Positions 4,301 to 33,243 of a stretch of DNA of 33,913 bases are shown piece by piece. Source of the stretch: Aquificota bacterium (GTDB lineage: Bacteria; Thermosulfidibacterota; Thermosulfidibacteria; Thermosulfidibacterales; B14-G1). The DNA is taken from positions 1-33,913 of the forward strand of contig WFSI01000101.1 in the NCBI GenBank assembly GCA_015486105.1, in the 5' to 3' direction. Position numbers and translations under genes: made by a program. The notes beneath the pieces are model-generated. The model was not told the origin of the DNA and did no database searches. It was given only the letters and a program-made list of their open reading frames with translations. Position 1 is the first letter of the stretch. Each line of letters starts with the position of its first letter.

Positions 4301-4335
4301 AATATTAAAGTTGCAGCATTCGAAAGGGGGACCCT

Positions 4336-5190
4336 GTGGAGTCCCGGTGCATAGGGTGTGTACCCATTGTGGTCTTTGATACGGAAACCACTGGGCTTTC
4401 TCCCCTCTCCCACGTGGTGGAGCTGGGGGCGGTAAAGCTGATGGGAGGAAGGCTGGTGGATACCATGGTGAGTCTGGTAAAGCCCCCTGTGCCTATTCCT
4501 CTGAAAGTGATTAGGATCCACGGCATTGATGATTCCATGGTGAGGTGTGCCCCTCCCTTTAAGGTGGTGGCTCGCCGTTTTAGTCAGTTTGTGGAGGGTT
4601 CCGTTTTGATTGCTCACAATGCACCCTTCGATTTGAGGGTCCTTTCTGTCAACCTCCAGAGGTTGGGGTTGTCCCTTCTGGATAATCCTGTGCTGGATAC
4701 CCGCCTTATTTCTCGGCGGCACTTTCCTGAGGTGGCGGATCACAGCTTGCGTCACCTTGTTCATGTGTGGAGGAGCCCTTTCAAGGGATGTCACAGGGCC
4801 TTGGCCGATGCCCGGCACACGGCCTTCATATTTTTGGGGATGATGCGGAAGGTGGGGCTTGATGAGAGGGATAGGATAAAGGACCTCTTTTCCCTCTTTG
4901 GCCCTCCAGACAGCATGCTCCGGTATCAGGCTAGATGGGAAGAGTTGGGTCGTAGGGACAGTAGGGTAGAACGCCTGCTTGTGGCTATGAAAGAGAGGAA
5001 GGTTTTGGAGATCTTTTACGACGGGGGAACCCTCCAGGGGAGTCGGTACGTTTCCCCTCTGACCCTCTTCTCTACGGGCAAGGTTCACTATCTCCGGGCC
5101 CTGTGCCCCCGGGAAGGGAAGGTTAAAACCTTCCGTATAGATCGGATTGCCTATATCCTTCCTGCTCAGGAAGAGGCAATCCAGAGGTAG
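4336..5190 (+). CDS. DEDDh 3'-5' exonuclease fused to a C-terminal WYL domain
   Basis: This 284-residue protein begins at a GTG with AAGGGGG six bases before it. Residues 10-170 are a DnaQ-type exonuclease with all catalytic residues visible: D15 and E17 in FDTETTG, D99 in HNAPFDLRVL, and H153 and D158 in HRALADARHTA. Residues about 205-280 form a WYL domain: LLVAMKERKVLEIFYDGG, then RYVSPLTLF, HYLRALCP and FRIDRIAYI. WYL domains bind ligands or nucleic acid and are usually joined to helix-turn-helix regulators or defence proteins. Stand-alone DnaQ-like exonucleases act in proofreading, repair or RNA trimming. The fusion suggests a nuclease whose activity is gated by a ligand or nucleic acid bound to WYL. 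The gene stands alone, divergent from the redox operon and convergent with the hydrolase gene. Confidence 0.85.
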   Translation: MESRCIGCVPIVVFDTETTGLSPLSHVVELGAVKLMGGRLVDTMVSLVKPPVPIPLKVIRIHGIDDSMVRCAPPFKVVARRFSQFVEGSVLIAHNAPFDLRVLSVNLQRLGLSLLDNPVLDTRLISRRHFPEVADHSLRHLVHVWRSPFKGCHRALADARHTAFIFLGMMRKVGLDERDRIKDLFSLFGPPDSMLRYQARWEELGRRDSRVERLLVAMKERKVLEIFYDGGTLQGSRYVSPLTLFSTGKVHYLRALCPREGKVKTFRIDRIAYILPAQEEAIQR

Positions 5191-5986: not shown

Positions 5987-6559
5987 TTAAAAGGTGAAGA
6001 ACTTTTGGCGTTTTTCCATTTCGGCCTTGATCTCTTCAGATAGACCTTTCAGTTGACCTTCTTTCAGGCTCTCCTGTTCAAAACCCAGTCTATTTAGGCT
6101 GTATCTCCAGGTGCTACAGTAGATGTTGATCATAGCCACGAAGGCCTCCTCAGCCACGTAAACTCTTTCCTTTAGGGCCTTGGCCATGGCTTTACAGGCT
6201 GTGGTCAAGGCCACGAAGTGCTTCCATGAATATTTATTATAAGGTTCATCCTTTCCTTTGTATAGTCTTCTCATGACGCTGGTGAGGATGATATTTTGAG
6301 TGCTGCTTAACCTTAAGTAGACCAGGGCGTGGTGGGGGGGGTTGATGGGGGTAGAAGGGATGTGGAAAGCGGAGTTGGCTACCTTTAAGATTTCTATAGT
6401 TAGGGTTTGATCGTGAGAGACCAAACTTTCGAGGCCTCGGATATCGGTGTTCTTGGAGCGAACCATGCCCAGGGCCTTTAGGGCTACCTGGGGAAGGATA
6501 GAGGGGGATACTTAACTTTCCAGCTTTTCCCTTACCTGGTCAATAGTGGTCTTTTCCAT
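5987..6559 (-). pseudogene. HDOD-domain protein interrupted by an in-frame TAA
   Basis: Translation from the ATG at 6559, 18 bases after purL, gives MEKTTIDQVREKLES, then a TAA at 6514-6512, then in the same frame VSPSILPQVALKALG leading into MVRSKNTDIRGLESLVSHD and LTIEILKVANSAF. The pattern LPxxALKxL...SLVSHDQxLTxEILKxANSAF is the N-terminal half of an HDOD signalling domain, and its first helix is encoded partly upstream of the ATG at 6466. A product starting at 6466 (159 residues) would lack that part. HDOD proteins act in signalling and regulation, often with second-messenger systems. The second half (near KHFVALTTACKAMAKAL) lacks the usual AGLLHDIG-like motif. Nonsense mutation, sequencing error or a shortened start at 6466 are the options. 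Confidence 0.6.
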
Positions 6560-17560: not shown

Positions 17561-18531
17561 TCTACCACTTCCACGTCCCCCGCTCCCAGAGAGATGATGG
17601 AGCCCCCCAGTCTTCTCACTAGAAGGGCACCCTGGGGTGTGACCCCTATGGCCCATCCTTCTCTTCCCCCTTGGAGTTTAACGGGTTTACCCAAGGTGAA
17701 GTTGTATTCCCTCCAATACCTCAGGATATCCTCCCGCTGACTTATCTGGAACCTTTCATACCATGTTTCTAAGGCCTCCATAATCCAGGTCAGGAGTTGG
17801 GGTCTCAGGTATCTCCGTTTCCCCTCTACCATGAGGGAGGTGGCCCTGGTGGATATCTCTAAAGGGAAGCCATTGTTAGGGGTATTAACGTTGAGGCCTA
17901 CCCCCACTACTAAAAAAAGGGGCCGTTTCTCTCTAGTCTCCATCTCCATGAGGATACCCGCTACTTTTCTTCCTTTAATATATACGTCATTGGGCCACTT
18001 TATAAGGGCATCTAACTGGAGCTTTTCTCTGATAACTTGGGTAAGGGCGACAGAGACAAGGAAGGTGAGCTGGGGCACTTCCATTATAGAAATCTCCGGT
18101 TTCAGTATGAGGGAGAAGTAAATGTTCTCTCCTTTGGGCGAGAACCAGGATCTTCCTAACCGTCCCCTGCCCCTTGTCTGGGCCTCGGCTACGACTAAGC
18201 TTCCGTGGGGGGCCCCTTGATGGGATAGCTCCTTGGCTACCCTATTGGTAGAGTCCACCTTTTCCAGGTAGTGATAGGGTTTTCCTATGTGGTGACTCTT
18301 TAATAGGGCTAAGTAGACAGGGGGGATGAGGAGATCTGGTACCCCTTCCAAGATGTATCCCTTTCTGGGGATAGAGCGAATAGGAATACCCCATGCCTTC
18401 AGGTGCTCCATTCTTTTGTGAAGGGCCACCCTGCTTATGCCCAGGGTCTGCGCCATCTCTTCTCCAGATACTGCTTCCCCCTTTCTTCCGATAAGGATGG
18501 ACATAAGGAGAGGGTCTTTGTCTGTTCCCAT
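17557..18531 (-). CDS. birA: Bifunctional biotin--[acetyl-CoA carboxylase] ligase / biotin repressor
   Basis: This 324-residue protein is read from the ATG at 18531 that overlaps the recJ stop (TGATG); an in-frame start 60 bases upstream would overlap recJ more. Residues about 8-65 are a winged helix-turn-helix (AQTLGISRVALHKRMEHLKAWGI, RKGYIL), as in the BirA repressor. The catalytic core follows with GRGRLGRSWFSPKG, the biotinyl-AMP-binding loop, and KWPNDVYIKGRKVAGILME. The C-terminal SH3-like domain ends with LGAGDVEVVE. It biotinylates carboxyl-carrier proteins and probably represses biotin genes; neither target type is in the window. Confidence 0.95.
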   Translation of the reverse strand: MGTDKDPLLMSILIGRKGEAVSGEEMAQTLGISRVALHKRMEHLKAWGIPIRSIPRKGYILEGVPDLLIPPVYLALLKSHHIGKPYHYLEKVDSTNRVAKELSHQGAPHGSLVVAEAQTRGRGRLGRSWFSPKGENIYFSLILKPEISIMEVPQLTFLVSVALTQVIREKLQLDALIKWPNDVYIKGRKVAGILMEMETREKRPLFLVVGVGLNVNTPNNGFPLEISTRATSLMVEGKRRYLRPQLLTWIMEALETWYERFQISQREDILRYWREYNFTLGKPVKLQGGREGWAIGVTPQGALLVRRLGGSIISLGAGDVEVVE

Positions 18532-20225
18532 CACTCCTGAGACCTTCTCACGGCCTTCACTTTGAGCTGGAGTGTCTTTTCTCCGTTCCATAGATTGAGT
18601 TCGGGTGTGAAGGCTATGTCCACTAACCCTTCGTGGAGGCTCTCGGCCTGGTACCCCAGGTTAAAGGCAATGGCGTCTACGCCGATGCCCCTCCTTACCG
18701 CGGTGAACTTGAGGTGCCCGTTTCCCACTACTCGTACCTGACGAGGCTGTACCCCTCTCAATAGAAAGATGGGTTCGGGGTGGCCTTCTCCGAAGGGGGC
18801 TAAAGATTGGAGCCCCCGGAGGAGGGAGGCATTCAGTTCTTCTATCTCCATGTCTCCTTCCAGCTCCAAGGGTCGGGGAGGTAAGGGATAGGGGATGATC
18901 CGGAGGGTTTCCTGCCAGAGGGTTTCTTTGAAACCCATTAGGTGTTTTTCCTCTAAGCTGAACCCGGCAGCGGCTCGGTGTCCCCCCAGATCCCGCAGAT
19001 GATCCATGCATCTGAGAAGGGGGGTATAGATATCTACTCCGCTATAGCTTCTGGCCGATCCTCTGCCCATTCCCTCTCTGTTGAAGGCTACTAAGGCGGC
19101 TGGCCGCTGGAACCTTTCGGTCAAGCGGGAGGCTACAATGCCGATGACCCCGGGATGCCAACCCCTTTTCCCCACTACAATGAAGGGACCTGGCTCTTCC
19201 CTTTCCAGTATTTCCAAGGCTTCTTGAAGGATTTCTTCCTCTACCTTTTGTCGTCTCTGGTTTTCCCGTTGGAGCTCCTGGGCCAAGGCTTTCCCTTCAT
19301 CCTTCTCTGAGGTTAAGAGGAGAAGGAAGGCTCTTTCCGCTTCCCCCATGCGTCCTGCAGCGTTAACTCGGGGAGCTAAGAGGAAAGAGACCTCCCAAGG
19401 GGTGATCTTTCTATTTTTACATCTGGTCACCTCTATTAGGGCTGCTAATCCGGGACGGGGGGATTGGTTCATCTTTTTTAGGCCAAACCTGGCGTAGAAA
19501 CGGTTTTCATCTGTGAGAAGGGCCATGTCTCCGATGGTACCAAGGGCAACCAAGTCCAGGTAGTGGTGCCACACTTCCCCTCTACCTTCCTCGCCTCTTT
19601 CCCTCATGGCCATAGCCTCCACCAGCTTGAGGGCTACACCTACACCAGCCAGGTGGGGAAATGGATAGTTTCCCAGCTTGGGATGGAGGATGGCTTGGGC
19701 CCTGGGCAAGAGAGGTGGAGGTTCGTGATGGTCGGTAATGATTACTTCCATGCCCTCTTCTTGGGCCTGAAGGACCTCTTGGTGATTGGATATGCCGCAA
19801 TCAACGGTGATGAGGAGCTGGACTCCCTTTTTTGCCAATTCTTTTATGGCTGGGGCTTTTAGGCCGTATCCCCCCTTGAGTCTGTGGGGAATGTGATAGA
19901 TAACTTTGCCCCCTTTTTCTCTAAGGTAGCTTACTAAAAGGGCCGTGGCTGTAACCCCGTCGGCGTCGTAGTCTCCATAAACGGCTGTGATTTTTCCAAC
20001 TCTGAGGGCCTTTTCCAGGATTTCCGTGGCCCTTTTCATCCCTTCCATCTCCCAGGGTAAAGGGACCATGGAAGGAGGAAGCTCCATAAACTCTTGGGCC
20101 TTTTGAGCATGGATAATTCCCCTGTTCACCAGAATTTTGGCAATGGCGAGGGGTATGCCCAGCTCCCTTACCAAGGCTGTAACGGCTTGGGAATCTGGGG
20201 CTTTTATGAGCCAGGATCTCTCCAT
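18531..20225 (-). CDS. recJ: Single-stranded-DNA-specific exonuclease RecJ
   Basis: This 564-residue protein is a DHH-superfamily 5'-3' ssDNA exonuclease used in recombination and repair. Motif I is DYDADG at 85-90, the DHH motif is ITDHHEP near 160, and the DHHA1 domain has GGHRAAAGFS near 410. The C-terminal OB-like region follows (LKFTAVRRGIGVDAIAFNLG). Length is normal. It starts two bases after the methyltransferase stop and overlaps birA. Confidence 0.96.
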   Translation of the reverse strand: MERSWLIKAPDSQAVTALVRELGIPLAIAKILVNRGIIHAQKAQEFMELPPSMVPLPWEMEGMKRATEILEKALRVGKITAVYGDYDADGVTATALLVSYLREKGGKVIYHIPHRLKGGYGLKAPAIKELAKKGVQLLITVDCGISNHQEVLQAQEEGMEVIITDHHEPPPLLPRAQAILHPKLGNYPFPHLAGVGVALKLVEAMAMRERGEEGRGEVWHHYLDLVALGTIGDMALLTDENRFYARFGLKKMNQSPRPGLAALIEVTRCKNRKITPWEVSFLLAPRVNAAGRMGEAERAFLLLLTSEKDEGKALAQELQRENQRRQKVEEEILQEALEILEREEPGPFIVVGKRGWHPGVIGIVASRLTERFQRPAALVAFNREGMGRGSARSYSGVDIYTPLLRCMDHLRDLGGHRAAAGFSLEEKHLMGFKETLWQETLRIIPYPLPPRPLELEGDMEIEELNASLLRGLQSLAPFGEGHPEPIFLLRGVQPRQVRVVGNGHLKFTAVRRGIGVDAIAFNLGYQAESLHEGLVDIAFTPELNLWNGEKTLQLKVKAVRRSQE

Positions 20226-28422: not shown

Positions 28423-28451
28423 TTGACAATTGGATTGTAAGGTCATATTTA
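28423..28451 (+). promoter_or_regulatory. Promoter of the ORP-like operon with a dyad over the -35 element
   Basis: A consensus TTGACA (28423-28428) and TATTTA (28446-28451) are spaced 17 bases, about 24 bases before the first start. The dyad ACAAT-TGG-ATTGT (28426-28438) overlaps the -35 and is a natural place for the MerR-type product of the first gene to bind. MerR promoters usually have 19-base spacers, so activation by DNA twisting is not implied; repression or simple autoregulation fits better. Confidence 0.55.
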
Positions 28452-28474
28452 CCTTCGGGCTTCAGGAGGTGGAG

Positions 28475-29176
28475 ATGGAGAATAAGCCTGTTTATACTAT
28501 AGGAGTGGTGAGCAGGCTATTGGGAGTCCATCCCCGGACCTTGAGGATATACGAAGAAGAGGGGCTCATCTCTCCCCAAAGGATAGGGGGTAAGCGTTTT
28601 TACTCGGATAGTGACCTTCACAGGCTCACGTGCATTAGGGCCCTTTTGGAAGAAGGTGTTAATATAGTCGGAGTCAAGAAACTCTTTTCCTTAGCCCCTT
28701 GCTGGAGAGTTCTGAGGTGTCCTGTTAGAAAAAGGGAGAAGTGTCCTTGGTATAAAGTTCATGGGAGGTGGAAGATGAAGATAGCTTTCGCAACAGAGAA
28801 CAACAAGGGGTTAAATGCTGATGTGTCCTTTCATTTCAGGCGGGCTCCTTTTTTTACCTTCGTGGACCTGGACCCTGATGGTGAGGTGGTTTCTGTGGAG
28901 GTGAAAGAGAATCCCTTTATTGACGTTCATGGTCCTGGGGTGATGCCGGGTTTTATAAGGGAGGAGGGCGCTGACATGATTGTGACAGGGGGGATGGGTA
29001 CCAGGGCTGCAGACCGTTTTCGCCAATGGGGCATAGAGGCCGTAGTGGGGGCCCAGGGAAGGGTGATGGACGTCCTTCGCTCTATTCTGGCAGGAGAAGG
29101 GTTTGAGGGGGAGTTGTGTGCTCCCCATGAGCACGAATGTGAGCATCATGAAGAGAAAGGGGAGGAAGAGCTATGA
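28475..29176 (+). CDS. MerR-family regulator fused to a NifX/NifB-type (dinitrogenase iron-molybdenum cofactor) domain
   Basis: This 233-residue protein is read from the ATG at 28475 with AGGAGGT five bases upstream; an in-frame start 45 bases earlier falls in the promoter. Residues 6-72 are a MerR winged helix (YTIGVVSRLLGVHPRTLRIYEEEGL, RFYSDSDLHRLTCIRALLEEGV). A cysteine segment with C76, C82 and C90 (CWRVLRCPVRKREKCPWY) follows. From M101 (MKIAFATENNKGLNADVSFHF) runs a complete NifX-like domain to about 212. The C-terminus CAPHEHECEHHEEKGEEEL is rich in Cys, His and Glu and could bind metal. The layout suggests a regulator that senses a metal cluster through its cofactor domain. It is translated ahead of the stand-alone NifX protein, with a four-base overlap. 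Confidence 0.92.
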   Translation: MENKPVYTIGVVSRLLGVHPRTLRIYEEEGLISPQRIGGKRFYSDSDLHRLTCIRALLEEGVNIVGVKKLFSLAPCWRVLRCPVRKREKCPWYKVHGRWKMKIAFATENNKGLNADVSFHFRRAPFFTFVDLDPDGEVVSVEVKENPFIDVHGPGVMPGFIREEGADMIVTGGMGTRAADRFRQWGIEAVVGAQGRVMDVLRSILAGEGFEGELCAPHEHECEHHEEKGEEEL

Positions 29177-29709
29177 AGATATGTGTGACTGCTGTGGGAC
29201 CAGGGATTGATGCCCAGGTGGATCCCCGTTTTGGGCGGGCGGCTTATTTTGCTTTTGTGGATACGGAGACTATGAAAGAGGATTCTATGGCTAATCCCAA
29301 TGTAGCAGCTGTGGGAGGAGCAGGTATCCAGTCGGCCCAGATGGTGGCTGAGAGGGGAGCCCAGGTGGTTATCACCGGTTATCTGGGACCTAATGCTGCT
29401 TCGGCCCTGGCGGCAGCGGGTGTACAGGTGGTGTTGGGAGTTCAAAACATGACAGTTGGGGAGGCAGTGGAGGCCTTCAAGGCTGGCCGCTTCCAGTCTA
29501 CTCTCCCCCAGGCTACAGGTCCTGCCCACATGGGGGGTATGGGGATGGGTAGAGGCATGGGTAGAATGGGCGGCTTTGGTACCATGCCTTCATCTCCTGG
29601 TTTTGAGAGAAGGGAGGATGAGGTTTCGGCTTTGAGAGAGGAGATGGAGTTTATCAAGGGGAGATTGGAGTACATAAATCGGAGGCTTCAGGAGCTGGAA
29701 AAGAAATGA
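29173..29709 (+). CDS. NifX/ORP-like cofactor-binding protein with Gly/Met-rich linker and coiled-coil tail
   Basis: This 178-residue protein has a NifX/NifB-type domain at 1-108 (MKICVTAVGPGIDAQVDPRFGRAAYF, GAGIQSAQMVAERGAQVVITG), the family of the Mo/Cu-binding orange protein of Desulfovibrio and MTH1175. A Gly/Met/Arg linker (GGMGMGRGMGRMGGFG, about 118-135) follows, then a coiled coil (EVSALREEMEFIKGRLEYI, 145-178). Linker plus coiled coil resemble DUF5320 proteins, so this looks like a NifX-DUF5320 fusion. It starts inside the stop of the MerR fusion gene (ATGA) and overlaps the next ATPase gene in the same way. Confidence 0.9.
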   Translation: MKICVTAVGPGIDAQVDPRFGRAAYFAFVDTETMKEDSMANPNVAAVGGAGIQSAQMVAERGAQVVITGYLGPNAASALAAAGVQVVLGVQNMTVGEAVEAFKAGRFQSTLPQATGPAHMGGMGMGRGMGRMGGFGTMPSSPGFERREDEVSALREEMEFIKGRLEYINRRLQELEKK

Positions 29710-30539
29710 GGATTACCGTTGCCAGCGGAAAAGGAGGAGCGGGGAAAACCAGTGTGGCGGTTAGTCTGGCTCTGGCAGCAGGTCAGGCCCTCTATGTGGA
29801 TTGTGATGTGGAGGAGCCTGATGGGGCCCTCCTCCTCCATCCCCATTTGACGTGGGAGGAGGAGGCTACCCTTTCCATGCCTGTGGTGGATGAAGGGAGG
29901 TGTGATTTTTGCAAGGCCTGTTCCGAGGCATGCCAATTTCACGCCATAATGGTTTTGCCCCACAAGGTTTTGGTCTTTGATAAGATGTGTCACGGCTGTG
30001 GCACTTGTGCCTTTGTATGTCCCCAGAGGGCTATCAGTGAGATTGATAGATCCATTGGACTTATTCAGGGTGGAGACAGGGATGACGTGGGTTATATAGG
30101 GGGGCGGCTCAACGTGGGGGAGCCTATGGCCACGCCCCTCATCCGCCAGGTGAAGGCCAAGATACCCCAAGATGCCCCTTTGGTTGTCCTGGATGCTCCT
30201 CCGGGGGTGGCTTGTCCCTTTGTGGAAACCCTGAGAGGTTCTGACTTCTGTCTGGTAGTGGCTGAGTCCACCCCCTTTGGGTTTCATGATTATCTTTTGG
30301 TGGAGGAGTATCTTCGGGAGCTCTCTGTTCCCTTTGGCGTGGTGCAAAACAAAGGGGGTCTTGGTGATGACAGGCTTCTTTGCCATCTGGAGAAGGAGGG
30401 CATTCCTCTCCTCCTGTCCCTTCCCTATCAGCGGGAGTGGTCCCGGGCTTATTCCTTAGGGGTCCCTTTGGTGGAGGCTGAGCCTTCCCTTTCCGAAGGC
30501 TTTCTGGAGCTATTGGGTACGGTGGAGGCCAGATTATGA
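29706..30539 (+). CDS. MinD/ParA-type ATPase with inserted 2x[4Fe-4S] ferredoxin domain (first copy)
   Basis: This 277-residue P-loop ATPase begins MRITVASGKGGAGKTSVAVSLA, the deviant Walker A of MinD/Mrp proteins. A ferredoxin insert at about 60-115 has two complete clusters: C66, C69, C72, C76 and C95, C98, C101, C105. VVLDAPPGVACPFVE is the Walker B/switch region near 160. It corresponds to the paired Fe-S ATPases of Desulfovibrio ORP operons (the DVU2103/DVU2104 type, as I recall the family). It overlaps both neighbours by four bases. Role is inferred: ATP-driven cofactor or cluster handling, or protein positioning. Confidence 0.93.
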   Translation: MRITVASGKGGAGKTSVAVSLALAAGQALYVDCDVEEPDGALLLHPHLTWEEEATLSMPVVDEGRCDFCKACSEACQFHAIMVLPHKVLVFDKMCHGCGTCAFVCPQRAISEIDRSIGLIQGGDRDDVGYIGGRLNVGEPMATPLIRQVKAKIPQDAPLVVLDAPPGVACPFVETLRGSDFCLVVAESTPFGFHDYLLVEEYLRELSVPFGVVQNKGGLGDDRLLCHLEKEGIPLLLSLPYQREWSRAYSLGVPLVEAEPSLSEGFLELLGTVEARL

Positions 30540-31399
30540 AAGGCTTTAAGGAGATCCTGGTGATAAGCGGCAAAGGGGGTACGGGCAAAACTACCCTTAC
30601 TTCATCCTTTGCCCTTCTGCCTCCAGAGAAAGTGGTGGTGGATGCTGACGTGGATGCTCCCGATCTCCACATACTCCTGAAGCCCAGGGTGGTGGAAGCC
30701 CAGGTTTTTATGGGCGGAAAGGCAGCTAAGATAGATGGGGATAAATGCACTCAGTGCGGTATCTGCAGGGAGTTATGCCGGTATGAGGCTATAGGAGAGA
30801 ACTATCGTGTGGACACTGCGGCCTGTGATGGTTGTGCCCTATGCTACTTTGCCTGTCCCCAGGAAGCTGTGACCCTGAAGGAGGAAGAGGCAGGTGTATG
30901 GTTCTTGTCCCAGGCCAGAAGCGGCCCCATGACCCATGCCCGTTTGCATCCTGGGCAGGAGAACTCAGGTAAGTTGGTGACTGTTGTTAGAAACCGGGCC
31001 AAAGAGCTGGCCCAGGAAGATGGTTACAGCCTTGTTCTTATCGATGGTCCCCCGGGCATAGGGTGTCCCGTCATCTCTTCCATGACAGGGGTTGATCAGG
31101 TCTTAGTGGTGACAGAGCCTACTCCTTCTGGTCAGCACGATCTGGGGAGGGTAGTGGACTTGGCTCGCCACTTTCAGGCGAGGCTCCAGGTTTGCATAAA
31201 CCAATATGACATAAATCCCCAGCGGGCCGGGGATATAGAGGAGTGGTGTAGTTCTCAGGGGTTGGAAGTAATAGGAAAGATACCATTCTCCCCGGATGTA
31301 CCCTTTCTGCAGGCTCGGGAGAAGGCACCTGTGGAAGGGGATGGGGAAGTGGGCAGATTGATAAAGGATCTGTGGGAAAAAGTGTTGGAGGGAGAATAA
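30536..31399 (+). CDS. MinD/ParA-type ATPase with inserted 2x[4Fe-4S] ferredoxin domain (second copy)
   Basis: This 287-residue paralogue of the preceding protein has Walker [10 protein letters not shown] at 12-20, clusters C71, C74, C77, C81 and C97, C100, C103, C107, and [15 protein letters not shown] as switch region. The two copies share layout but differ in most positions, which fits an obligate heterodimer rather than a recent duplication. It starts in the stop of the first copy, and its stop overlaps the Mrp start (TAATG). Confidence 0.93.
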
Positions 31400-32274
31400 T
31401 GGCTGAGTGTAAAGAAAACAGAGGCTGCTCTACCTGCCAACAGGCTTCAACGTGTAGCGTTGAGGAGCAGCGTCGTCATCAGGAAGAAGAGTTAAGGCGC
31501 CGGTTGACCACGATAAGACATCGGCTGATGATTATGAGTGGCAAAGGGGGAGTTGGCAAGTCTACCGTGGCGGCCAATCTGGCCTGGGCCTTGGCCGATA
31601 GAGGATACAAGGTGGGTCTTTTGGATGCCGATATTCACGGCCCCAATATCCCTCTTATGCTGGGTGTAGAGGGAAGGCGCCTGGCCATGAGCCCTGAGGG
31701 CATTGAACCTTTGGAGGTGACTCCGGGGCTTAAAGTGGTTTCCATGAGTTTCCTCCTCCGTGACTCTGATACCCCAGTCATTTGGAGAGGCCCTCTAAAG
31801 ATGGGTGCCCTGCGCCAGTTCTTGGGTGAGGTGAACTGGGGAGATTTGGACTTTCTCATAGTGGATCTGCCTCCCGGTACAGGAGATGAGCCCCTTTCCA
31901 TAGCCCAGCTTCTTAAAGAGGTGGATGGTTCTATAGTGGTGACTACTCCTCAGGATGTGGCCCTTTTGGACTCCAGGAAGAGCGTGAACTTTAGCAGGAA
32001 GGTGCAGGTCCCCGTGTTGGGCATTATTGAGAACATGAGCGGTTTTGTCTGCCCCCATTGTGGTAAAAAGGTGAATCTCCTTAAGAGTGGAGGAGGGGAA
32101 AAAGCTGCCCAGGAATTGAATGTACCCTTCTTGGGAAGGATTCCTATAGATACCCAGGTGGTAGAATTAGGCGACGAGGGCAGGCCATTGTTGGAGGATG
32201 CTCCGGATAGCTTTGCTGCCCGTGCTTTTCGGGAGGTAGTGGAAAGCATTCTGGAGAGGGTGGGGGAGCTATGA
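31399..32274 (+). CDS. Mrp/NBP35-family Fe-S carrier ATPase
   Basis: This 291-residue protein is read from the ATG at 31399, which overlaps the previous stop; a GTG 27 bases upstream is less likely because GGAGGGAG precedes the ATG. The N-terminus carries C4, C10, C13 and C19, like the NBP35 N-terminal cluster site. Walker A is [19 protein letters not shown], and a C-terminal CxxC is in [11 protein letters not shown], the site for the bridging cluster of the Mrp/ApbC dimer. It probably carries [4Fe-4S] clusters to target apoproteins. Unlike some ORP-operon Mrp proteins it has no fused NifX domain. Confidence 0.95.
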
Positions 32275-32852
32275 AGTGTGCCTATTGTCACGAGAAGGTT
32301 TGTTACCAAGGTAAGGACTGCTTTGATATGAAGGAGGAGAGCCTTCAGGCTTACAAAAAGGATCCTGAGTCTGCCCATCTCTCCCGGGTGGCCACCTCCA
32401 TTGAAAGCGATGGTTACATGAGATGGTGCAGGGTGGAAGAGGTGATAGAGTTTGCCAAGAGGATGGGCTATCACCATTTGGGCATCGCCTTCTGTGTGGG
32501 TATGGGCCGAGAGGCAGAGATTCTTCAAAGGATATCAGAAAAGGCAGGGTTTAAGGTAAGCTCTGTGTGTTGCAAGATGGGGGGCATAGAAAAGTCCGAG
32601 TTGGACTTTAAACATATCAAACCCCAGCGCTATGAGGCTATCTGTAACTCTATTGGTCAGGCCAAGGTCCTCAATGAAGCAGGCACAGAACTCAACCTTA
32701 TAGTGGGGCTATGTATAGGTCATGATATTCTGTTTACCCGGTATTCGAAGGCCCCTGTCACCACAGTAGTGGTGAAGGACAGGGTAATGGCCCATAATCC
32801 TGTGGGCGCTCTCTATTCGGGATACTATCACAGAAACAGGTTCGGCATTTAG
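32271..32852 (+). CDS. DUF1847 cysteine-rich protein
   Basis: This 193-residue protein starts at an ATG inside the mrp stop. Its N-terminus is [17 protein letters not shown] (C3, C6, C11, C17), a metal-site signature, and the body has the DUF1847 pattern [39 protein letters not shown] and [19 protein letters not shown]. Several further cysteines suggest a second metal or Fe-S site. Function of the family is unknown; it recurs beside Mrp and ferredoxin genes in anaerobes. Confidence 0.92.
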
Positions 32853-32862
32853 AGGAGGGGTT

Positions 32863-33243
32863 ATGTACAGGGTAGATAAAGACAAGTGCGTTGGATGTGG
32901 GAAGTGCGTAGAGGCTTGCAACTTTGGAGCTATAACCCTTCAGGGGGAGGGGAAGGACAAGAAGGCCTTTATAGAACCTCCCCTTTGCCAGGACTGTGGC
33001 ACCTGTGCTGAAGTTTGCCCTGTAGGTGCCATATCTAAGGTTCCCTTTAGGGAGGCTATAGCCGTGGCACATGCATGGGATACAGGGGGTATGGGGCCCC
33101 TACCCGCTTGGGGACCAGGTAGAGGTAAAGGTGTGGGACGGGGCCCCGGAGCTGGTATGGGTCGAGGCAGAGGGAGAGGCATGGGCCGAGGCAGAGGCAT
33201 GGGCCGGGGTAGAGGACCGGGGAGCGGTAGGGGCATGAGGTAA
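32863..33243 (+). CDS. 2x[4Fe-4S] ferredoxin with a Gly/Arg/Met-rich C-terminal tail
   Basis: This 126-residue protein has a bacterial ferredoxin at 1-60 with clusters C9, C12, C15, C19 and C42, C45, C48, C52, followed by a short linker (AIAVAHAWDTGG) and about 45 residues made almost only of Gly, Arg and Met. The tail is encoded by an 18-base degenerate tandem repeat. The tail may bind RNA, membrane phosphates or partner proteins, and it resembles the Gly/Arg-rich part of DUF5320 proteins. It is the last gene of the operon, ten bases after the DUF1847 gene. No clear terminator follows. Confidence 0.9.
   Translation: MYRVDKDKCVGCGKCVEACNFGAITLQGEGKDKKAFIEPPLCQDCGTCAEVCPVGAISKVPFREAIAVAHAWDTGGMGPLPAWGPGRGKGVGRGPGAGMGRGRGRGMGRGRGMGRGRGPGSGRGMR
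33154..33213 (+). repeat. Degenerate 18-bp tandem repeat coding for the ferredoxin tail
   Basis: Units of the form GGCATGGGCCGAGGCAGA begin at 33154, 33178 and 33196, with a six-base GGGAGA insertion between the first two. They are in frame and encode Gly-Met-Gly-Arg-Gly-Arg. Unit number may vary between strains. Confidence 0.7.

What the first reader, a model, noticed from the sequence alone, without database searches (positions are those of the whole stretch)
4336..5190. DnaQ-type exonuclease fused to a WYL domain
All five DEDDh catalytic residues and a well-formed WYL domain lie in one protein. WYL domains are sensors often linked to CRISPR, phage defence and DNA damage. A ligand-gated nuclease could be a defence effector or an RNA/DNA repair enzyme. 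No helix-turn-helix is present, so it is not a usual WYL regulator.
Basis: partly seen in the sequence, partly recalled or inferred. Interest (0 to 1): 0.55.

Follow-up and report, generated by a model that had tools for sequence, protein, structure and literature searches.

The report
DNA-chewing enzyme with ssDNA-binding tail
A bacterial enzyme predicted to trim nucleic acid from the 3' end carries a small add-on domain of a kind that grips single-stranded DNA; the pairing is real, old and widespread, and looks like ordinary DNA upkeep rather than virus defence.

Summary
Window 4336-5190 (+) encodes 284 aa: a DEDDh exonuclease (RNase_T, E 5.9e-31, all five catalytic residues) followed by a WYL domain (E 4.1e-9, above cut-off), with no HTH. 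Selection keeps both halves. All 9 of 9 held genomes of its phylum carry it (8 intact, one cut by an assembly gap), as do 27 of the 377 other genomes searched. In the phylum it is the only RNase_T protein (9 of 9).

The defence reading is not supported. The window is housekeeping, no defence gene was seen to recur beside the fusion, and 0 of 80 viral exonuclease loci carry the WYL.

The WYL half models as a true WYL: all 27 PDB matches at E<=0.001 are WYL proteins. It keeps the residues that PafB needs to bind ssDNA (R237, Y252, R267, R270; K264 for one Arg). It lacks HTH and WCX domains. Best reading: a 3'-5' exonuclease with a C-terminal ssDNA grip, like the WYL of thermophilic Pif1 helicases. 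WYL plus 3'->5' exoRNase was named in print in 2014 (PMC4012209), so this is a new member of a known kind. Substrate and gating are untested.

The parts
4336..5190 (+). Gene for the DnaQ-type exonuclease-WYL fusion, 284 aa, GTG start, stop included
   Evidence: 8 intact orthologues plus one cut by an assembly gap in 9 of 9 phylum genomes; purifying selection on both halves
4369..4833 (+). DEDDh 3'-5' exonuclease domain, residues 12-166; catalytic residues D15, E17, D99, H153, D158
   Evidence: Pfam RNase_T E 5.9e-31; five residues identical in 40 of 40 fusions; AF2 model matches PolC exonuclease, epsilon, ExoX, DinG
4834..4968 (+). Helical linker, residues 167-211 (lower model confidence around 190-210)
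   Evidence: AF2 model
4969..5151 (+). WYL domain, residues 212-272, Sm-like barrel; basic and aromatic residues R237, Y252, K264, R267, R270, and C257
   Evidence: Pfam WYL E 4.1e-9; all 27 Foldseek PDB matches at E<=0.001 are WYL proteins; profile match to PafBC 1.1e-23; conservation counts
4323..4330 (+). Shine-Dalgarno-like AAAGGGGG, 5 bases before the GTG start
   Evidence: Read from the sequence; not tested

Best explanation
It is a chromosomal housekeeping 3'-5' exonuclease of the DnaQ (DEDDh) superfamily with a C-terminal WYL domain acting as an accessory single-strand-binding module. The WYL barrel holds the single strand through its conserved arginines and Tyr252, raising affinity, processivity or substrate choice, while the N-terminal domain removes nucleotides from the 3' end with two metal ions. 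The likely setting is trimming of ssDNA ends in repair and recombination, alongside RecJ and exonuclease VII. Shown by sequence and model: both domains, intact catalytic and ssDNA-contact residues, conservation, being the only RNase_T protein of the lineage, housekeeping setting in the window. Inferred: ssDNA as ligand, effect on processivity, role in repair.
For: Domains and catalytic set. The WYL-only AF2 model (pLDDT 91.2) matches PafBC, CapW, BrxR and DriD, several solved with ssDNA; all 27 matches at E<=0.001 are WYL proteins. The profile of the WYL part matches PafBC (1.1e-23), an AAA ATPase with a C-terminal WYL (8bnv, 2.2e-14), PafC and DriD. By residue counting on the PafC alignment, window R237, Y252, R267 and R270 fall on PafC R171, Y186, R201, R204; by spacing these equal PafB R181, Y196, R211, R214, whose alanine changes abolish ssDNA binding (PMC11804915, passages); K264 stands at PafB R208. 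R/K at all three of 237/267/270 in 30 of 40 fusions. Precedent: the WYL of Thermotoga elfii Pif1 is an accessory ssDNA-binding module that couples ATPase and helicase (passages of PMC6628001 and PMC9964779). The only RNase_T protein in 9 of 9 phylum genomes; exonuclease VII in 9 of 9; RecJ in the window; DnaE PHP motifs intact in 6 of 6 DnaE read.
Against: No activity or binding data exist. Ten of 40 fusions lack a basic residue at one or more of 237/267/270; in G005 of the same phylum R237, C257 and R270 are gone and the WYL is degenerate. PafB R204 corresponds to E260 here. In PafBC the ssDNA path also uses the WCX domain, which this protein lacks. The substrate could be RNA: the 2014 authors called the partner an exoRNase, and RNase T, ERI1 and ERI3 are also among the fold matches. 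The interdomain arrangement is only moderately fixed (pTM 0.76). The exonuclease tree suggests that the fusion was gained or lost more than once, which suits a modular add-on but weakens any one-role claim.
Confidence: 0.5

Rival explanations
1. Allosteric switch: the exonuclease is held inactive until short ssDNA (or another oligonucleotide) binds the WYL groove, making it a DNA-damage-triggered nuclease.
For: ssDNA binding to WYL is an allosteric signal in DriD and PafBC (passages); the same residues are kept here; separate, well-folded domain behind a helical linker.
Against: No WCX or HTH through which those switches act; C-terminal tails after the WYL core are 0-47 aa in 40 of 40 rows. 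The Pif1 precedent describes an accessory binding module. No apo/bound comparison is possible here.
Confidence: 0.2
2. RNA enzyme: a 3'-5' exoribonuclease that uses the Sm-like WYL to hold RNA, in RNA turnover or rRNA/tRNA processing.
For: Makarova 2014 name a WYL-3'->5' exoRNase fusion; RNase T, ERI1 and ERI3 among the fold matches; in G005 the gene follows a DHH-family gene and precedes a SpoU rRNA methylase gene, with an upstream ORF that I recognise as rbfA-like by eye only.
Against: Best sequence and fold matches are DNA enzymes: PolC exonuclease, epsilon, DinG, ExoX. The nucleic-acid ligands named in the WYL structure matches are DNA. Only one locus has the RNA-processing setting, and its WYL is the degenerate one.
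Confidence: 0.2
3. Ligand-gated anti-phage effector.
For: PADLOC holds CRISPR-associated models that match both domains; in 3 genomes of family f3 an ARPP-1 gene and a kinase-UvrD helicase gene follow the fusion, and ARPP was proposed to work in conflict systems (PMC9503650 passages).
Against: Present in 9 of 9 phylum genomes; housekeeping neighbours; no recurrent defence neighbour seen; the most frequent PADLOC hits among 103 neighbours are PD-T4-6 models, in 4 of 103 at most, which I recall to be protein kinases; ARPP-1 not found in the window's genome.
Confidence: 0.07
4. Replicative proofreading subunit (epsilon) of DNA polymerase III for this lineage.
For: Only RNase_T protein of 9 of 9 phylum genomes; epsilon is a close fold match.
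Against: DnaE PHP domains keep the motifs of an active proofreading PHP in 6 of 6 read (the link of these motifs to proofreading is recalled). A WYL domain stands where epsilon has its polymerase-binding tail (recalled).
Confidence: 0.08

Closest known systems
Pif1 helicase with C-terminal WYL (Thermotoga elfii, Deferribacter desulfuricans)
   Same: DNA-processing enzyme with a C-terminal WYL; the WYL of T. elfii Pif1 is an accessory ssDNA-binding module (PMC6628001, PMC9964779 passages); profile match 2.2e-14 to 8bnv, an AAA ATPase with a C-terminal WYL
   Different: Helicase core instead of a DEDDh exonuclease
PafBC and DriD, ssDNA-sensing WYL transcription factors
   Same: WYL fold and ssDNA-contact residues
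   Different: They have HTH and WCX domains and act on transcription; this protein has neither and is a predicted nuclease
WYL-3'->5' exoRNase fusion of Makarova et al. 2014
   Same: Same domain pair as far as the main text says (PMC4012209, passages); probably the same family
   Different: Their supplementary list was not read, so identity of the proteins could not be checked
PolC exonuclease domain, Pol III epsilon, ExoX, DinG exonuclease domain
   Same: DEDDh fold and catalytic set
   Different: No WYL domain is reported for them in the matches
E. coli exonuclease I (SbcB)
   Same: DnaQ-type exonuclease matched at Z 19.6 over 178 residues; its following SH3-like ssDNA-binding domain is recalled, not from a call
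   Different: Foldseek alignments beyond the exonuclease have rmsd near 14 A, so the second domains do not superpose; only an analogy

Membership tests
DnaQ-superfamily DEDDh exonuclease (PF00929) | Profile score above the curated cut-off and fold | tested here: met
   108.7 bits vs 24; PolC 9qrn Z 24.2, rmsd 2.0 over 188 residues
DnaQ-superfamily DEDDh exonuclease (PF00929) | Five catalytic residues D, E, D, H, D | tested here: met
   D15, E17, D99, H153, D158, 40 of 40 fusions
DnaQ-superfamily DEDDh exonuclease (PF00929) | Metal-dependent 3'-5' exonuclease activity | not testable with these tools
   Needs an enzyme assay
WYL domain (PF13280) | Profile score above the curated cut-off | tested here: met
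   36.7 bits vs 21.8; 39 of 40 fusions match at E<=0.01
WYL domain (PF13280) | Sm-like barrel fold matching solved WYL domains | tested here: met
   27 of 27 PDB matches at E<=0.001 are WYL proteins
WYL domain (PF13280) | Basic groove residues | tested here: met
   Window R237, K264, R267, R270; PafC R201/R204 counterparts by the alignment
WYL transcription factor (PafBC/DriD/BrxR/CapW type) | N-terminal helix-turn-helix | tested here: not met
   No HTH family in the window protein nor among the 9 families matched by 40 fusions
WYL transcription factor (PafBC/DriD/BrxR/CapW type) | C-terminal WCX dimer domain | tested here: not met
   Only 0-47 residues follow the WYL core in 40 of 40 rows
Pif1-type accessory WYL module | WYL at the C-terminus of a DNA-processing enzyme with ssDNA-contact arginines | tested here: met
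   the function itself is untested
Anti-phage defence system | Recurrent defence neighbours across lineages | tested here: not met
   44 loci, genes within 8 of the fusion: no family in more than 3 lineages, and by eye none of those is a defence gene
DNA polymerase III epsilon subunit | Binding to the polymerase alpha subunit and clamp | not tested
   DnaE PHP motifs intact in 6 of 6 make it unnecessary but do not exclude it

The most novel reading that the evidence does not exclude
The protein is a damage-gated exonuclease: its WYL domain reads ssDNA fragments by the PafBC/DriD rule and switches on the only DnaQ-type exonuclease of a whole phylum-level lineage, so DNA damage controls end resection directly and without transcription.
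Probability: 0.15. Interest if true: 0.55.

Novelty: new member of a known kind. Interest (0 to 1): 0.3.

Why it matters
WYL domains are mostly discussed as sensors of transcription factors in defence and DNA damage. Here the same domain, with the residues shown to bind ssDNA, sits on a predicted end-trimming enzyme in at least 36 of 386 genomes searched (39 of 40 aligned rows pass the WYL model), and in one lineage that enzyme is the only one of its family. It adds to the view of WYL as a general single-strand-binding module of DNA enzymes, as in Pif1, and gives a simple two-domain protein in which 'grip' and 'switch' can be told apart.

Tried and rejected
Defence islands: neighbours of 44 loci clustered and 103 neighbour proteins scanned with PADLOC and Pfam; the most frequent PADLOC hits are PD-T4-6 models in 4 of 103 at most. 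Only the first 25 families of each list were shown, and no control set of neighbours was scanned.

A CinA-like neighbour (beside the fusion in L082, read by eye) looked promising, but recurred only once, seven genes away, in L075; dropped.

Phage or plasmid origin: the one phage record covering 89% of the query (a Listeria phage record) has an exonuclease in a 592-aa open frame and no WYL. 0 of 665 matching plasmid records cover 80% of the query.

Split gene in G006: the break is a run of 9 N in the assembly, not biology.

One origin of the fusion: on a quick tree of 40 fused and 40 other exonuclease domains the fused rows need 13 changes, at least 3 forced by starred branches, and one clade is weakly rejected (p-AU 0.028). 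The careful tree was not finished. 'Other' rows were labelled by match length and open-frame length, not each scanned for WYL. The tree is too poorly resolved to say more.

Exonuclease I likeness: tested only through fold lists; the second domains do not superpose.

Full report
What is there. Window 4336-5190 (+) encodes a 284-aa protein starting with GTG. Pfam finds an RNase_T (DnaQ-type) exonuclease at residues 12-166, E 5.9e-31, and a WYL domain at 212-272, E 4.1e-9, both above the curated cut-offs, and no HTH. PADLOC WYL models agree. A WYL profile built from fusions outside the window's phylum still scores the window's domain at 49.0 bits.

It is a real, conserved gene. In the 9 genomes held for its phylum the fusion is present in 9 of 9: identity 74-77% within the family, 44-52% elsewhere in the order. 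The apparent split in G006 is a 9-N assembly gap. In pairwise comparisons third codon positions change most in both domains; for example the exonuclease part of window against G001 differs 35/19/84 and the WYL part 14/12/40.

It is widespread. Searching 386 genomes with the profile of ten fusions gave 206 genomes with some match at E <= 1e-20, mostly exonuclease only. I took the listed matches that ran through the WYL part: 31 loci in 27 of the 377 genomes outside the phylum, two genomes having three copies each. The list was cut, so this is a lower bound. With the phylum's 8 intact genes and one named deltaproteobacterial MAG (L019) I aligned 40 fusions: 40 of 40 match RNase_T and 39 of 40 match WYL at E <= 0.01. 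D15, E17, D99, H153, D158 and Y228 are invariant. A quick tree of 40 fused and 40 other exonuclease domains suggests the fusion was gained or lost more than once (13 changes, at least 3 forced; p-AU 0.028 for one clade).

It is the only enzyme of its kind in its lineage. A family search for RNase_T found exactly one protein in each of the 9 phylum genomes, this one. WYL was also found only here in 7 of 9; G005 and G006 have one more. So no separate epsilon, exonuclease I, ExoX, RNase T or Orn was found in these genomes, which are 71-96% complete. Proofreading does not require this gene: 6 of 6 DnaE proteins read keep the PHP motifs HLH..S, LDG, TDH, GCE, NDCH (that these mark an active proofreading PHP is recalled). 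Exonuclease VII is present in 9 of 9, and RecJ lies in the window at 18531-20225.

Surroundings. The window is housekeeping throughout: 2-oxoacid oxidoreductase genes, an XRE-cupin regulator, a metallo-beta-lactamase-fold hydrolase, an HDOD fragment, purL, deformylase, glycogen synthase, thyX, a release factor, a ComEC-like gene, a class I tRNA synthetase, recJ, a LonB-type protease, cmk, and Fe-S/NUBPL genes (some gene names are my reading of the family hits). Across 44 loci (39 full-length fusions, the gapped one and four exonuclease-only loci) no neighbour family within 8 genes recurs in more than 3 lineages, and by eye none of those is a defence gene. Among 103 neighbour proteins from 29 loci, no Pfam family is matched by more than 4. 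In family f3 the gene lies in a same-strand run of CheR, HAD hydrolase, fusion, ARPP-1 and kinase-UvrD helicase genes. The ARPP-1/kinase-UvrD pair also occurs elsewhere in genomes G002 and G004, and ARPP-1 was not found in the other four genomes, the window's included. ARPP was proposed as part of conflict systems (PMC9503650, passages), so this is the one hint in favour of a defence link.

Structure. The full model (40 sequences) has mean pLDDT 92.7 and pTM 0.76. The exonuclease half matches the PolC exonuclease, epsilon, DinG, ExoX and TREX enzymes. The WYL half modelled alone (pLDDT 91.2, pTM 0.80) matches only WYL proteins at E <= 0.001: PafBC, CapW, BrxR and DriD, several with ssDNA (27 of 27). 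By sequence profile the best PDB relatives are PafBC (1.1e-23), an AAA ATPase with a C-terminal WYL (8bnv, 2.2e-14) and PafC. I link 8bnv to a Pif1 of PMC9964779 by inference; that paper (passages) describes two thermophile Pif1 proteins with a C-terminal WYL.

Ligand site. Counting along the PafC alignment, window R237, Y252, R267, R270 fall on PafC R171, Y186, R201, R204, by spacing the counterparts of PafB R181, Y196, R211, R214. Alanine changes of these in PafB (R181A; Y196A; R211A/R214A) abolished ssDNA binding (PMC11804915, passages). K264 stands at PafB R208; E260 at PafB R204, while 21 of 40 fusions have Arg at 260. R or K stands at all three of 237, 267 and 270 in 30 of 40 fusions; the ten exceptions include the phylum member G005 (L078), whose WYL is degenerate. 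A WCX domain has no room: 0-47 residues follow the WYL core in 40 of 40 rows.

How it probably works. A DEDDh exonuclease with a C-terminal ssDNA grip is the simplest reading (confidence 0.5). The closest experimental parallel is the T. elfii Pif1 helicase, whose C-terminal WYL is an accessory ssDNA-binding module (passages in PMC6628001 and PMC9964779; the primary paper of 2018 was not read). A true allosteric switch (0.2), an RNA substrate (0.2), an epsilon role (0.08) and defence (0.07) remain as rivals. Substrate, gating and biological role are inferred, not shown.

Is it new? Makarova et al. 2014 write that WYL domains combine with a 3'->5' exoRNase among other enzymes (PMC4012209, passages), so the architecture is in print. 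Text searches with WYL plus exonuclease, DnaQ, exoribonuclease or DEDDh (1, 17, 6 and 9 papers listed) showed me no experimental study of it. Across the session I read passages of nine papers (PMC4012209, PMC12340889, PMC9122588, PMC6628001, PMC9964779, PMC11804915, PMC6789036, PMC9503650, PMC7159879) and only search listings of the rest. The library lacks most subscription journals. I therefore call it a new member of a known kind, with modest interest.

Noticed in passing
L080 9626-12229 (G007), L081 110-2713 (G008); also G002 C32 and G004 C33: An 867-869 aa protein joins a Ser/Thr protein kinase (residues 9-260) to a UvrD-type helicase (276-845) and is paired with an ARPP-1 gene; in family f3 this pair directly follows the exonuclease-WYL gene.
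   Followed up: partly
L078 766-3783 (G005): In this genome the fusion lies between a DHH-family gene and a SpoU rRNA methylase gene, and its WYL domain has lost R237, C257 and R270, as if the domain were decaying.
   Followed up: partly
L086-L091 (genomes G105 and G371): Two related genomes carry three paralogous exonuclease-WYL fusions each, in different neighbourhoods.
   Followed up: no
window 5987-6466 (-): A 159-aa HDOD-domain ORF matches profile positions 15-124 of 196 only, so it may be a decayed or truncated gene; the G001 region (L074) shows no such ORF between the hydrolase and purL.
   Followed up: no
window 28430-33240 (+): A run of MerR-plus-dinitrogenase-cofactor-domain, second cofactor-domain, three ParA/NUBPL-type P-loop genes (two with Fe-S motifs), DUF1847 and a ferredoxin-like gene, resembling an Fe-S or Mo cofactor island.
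   Followed up: no
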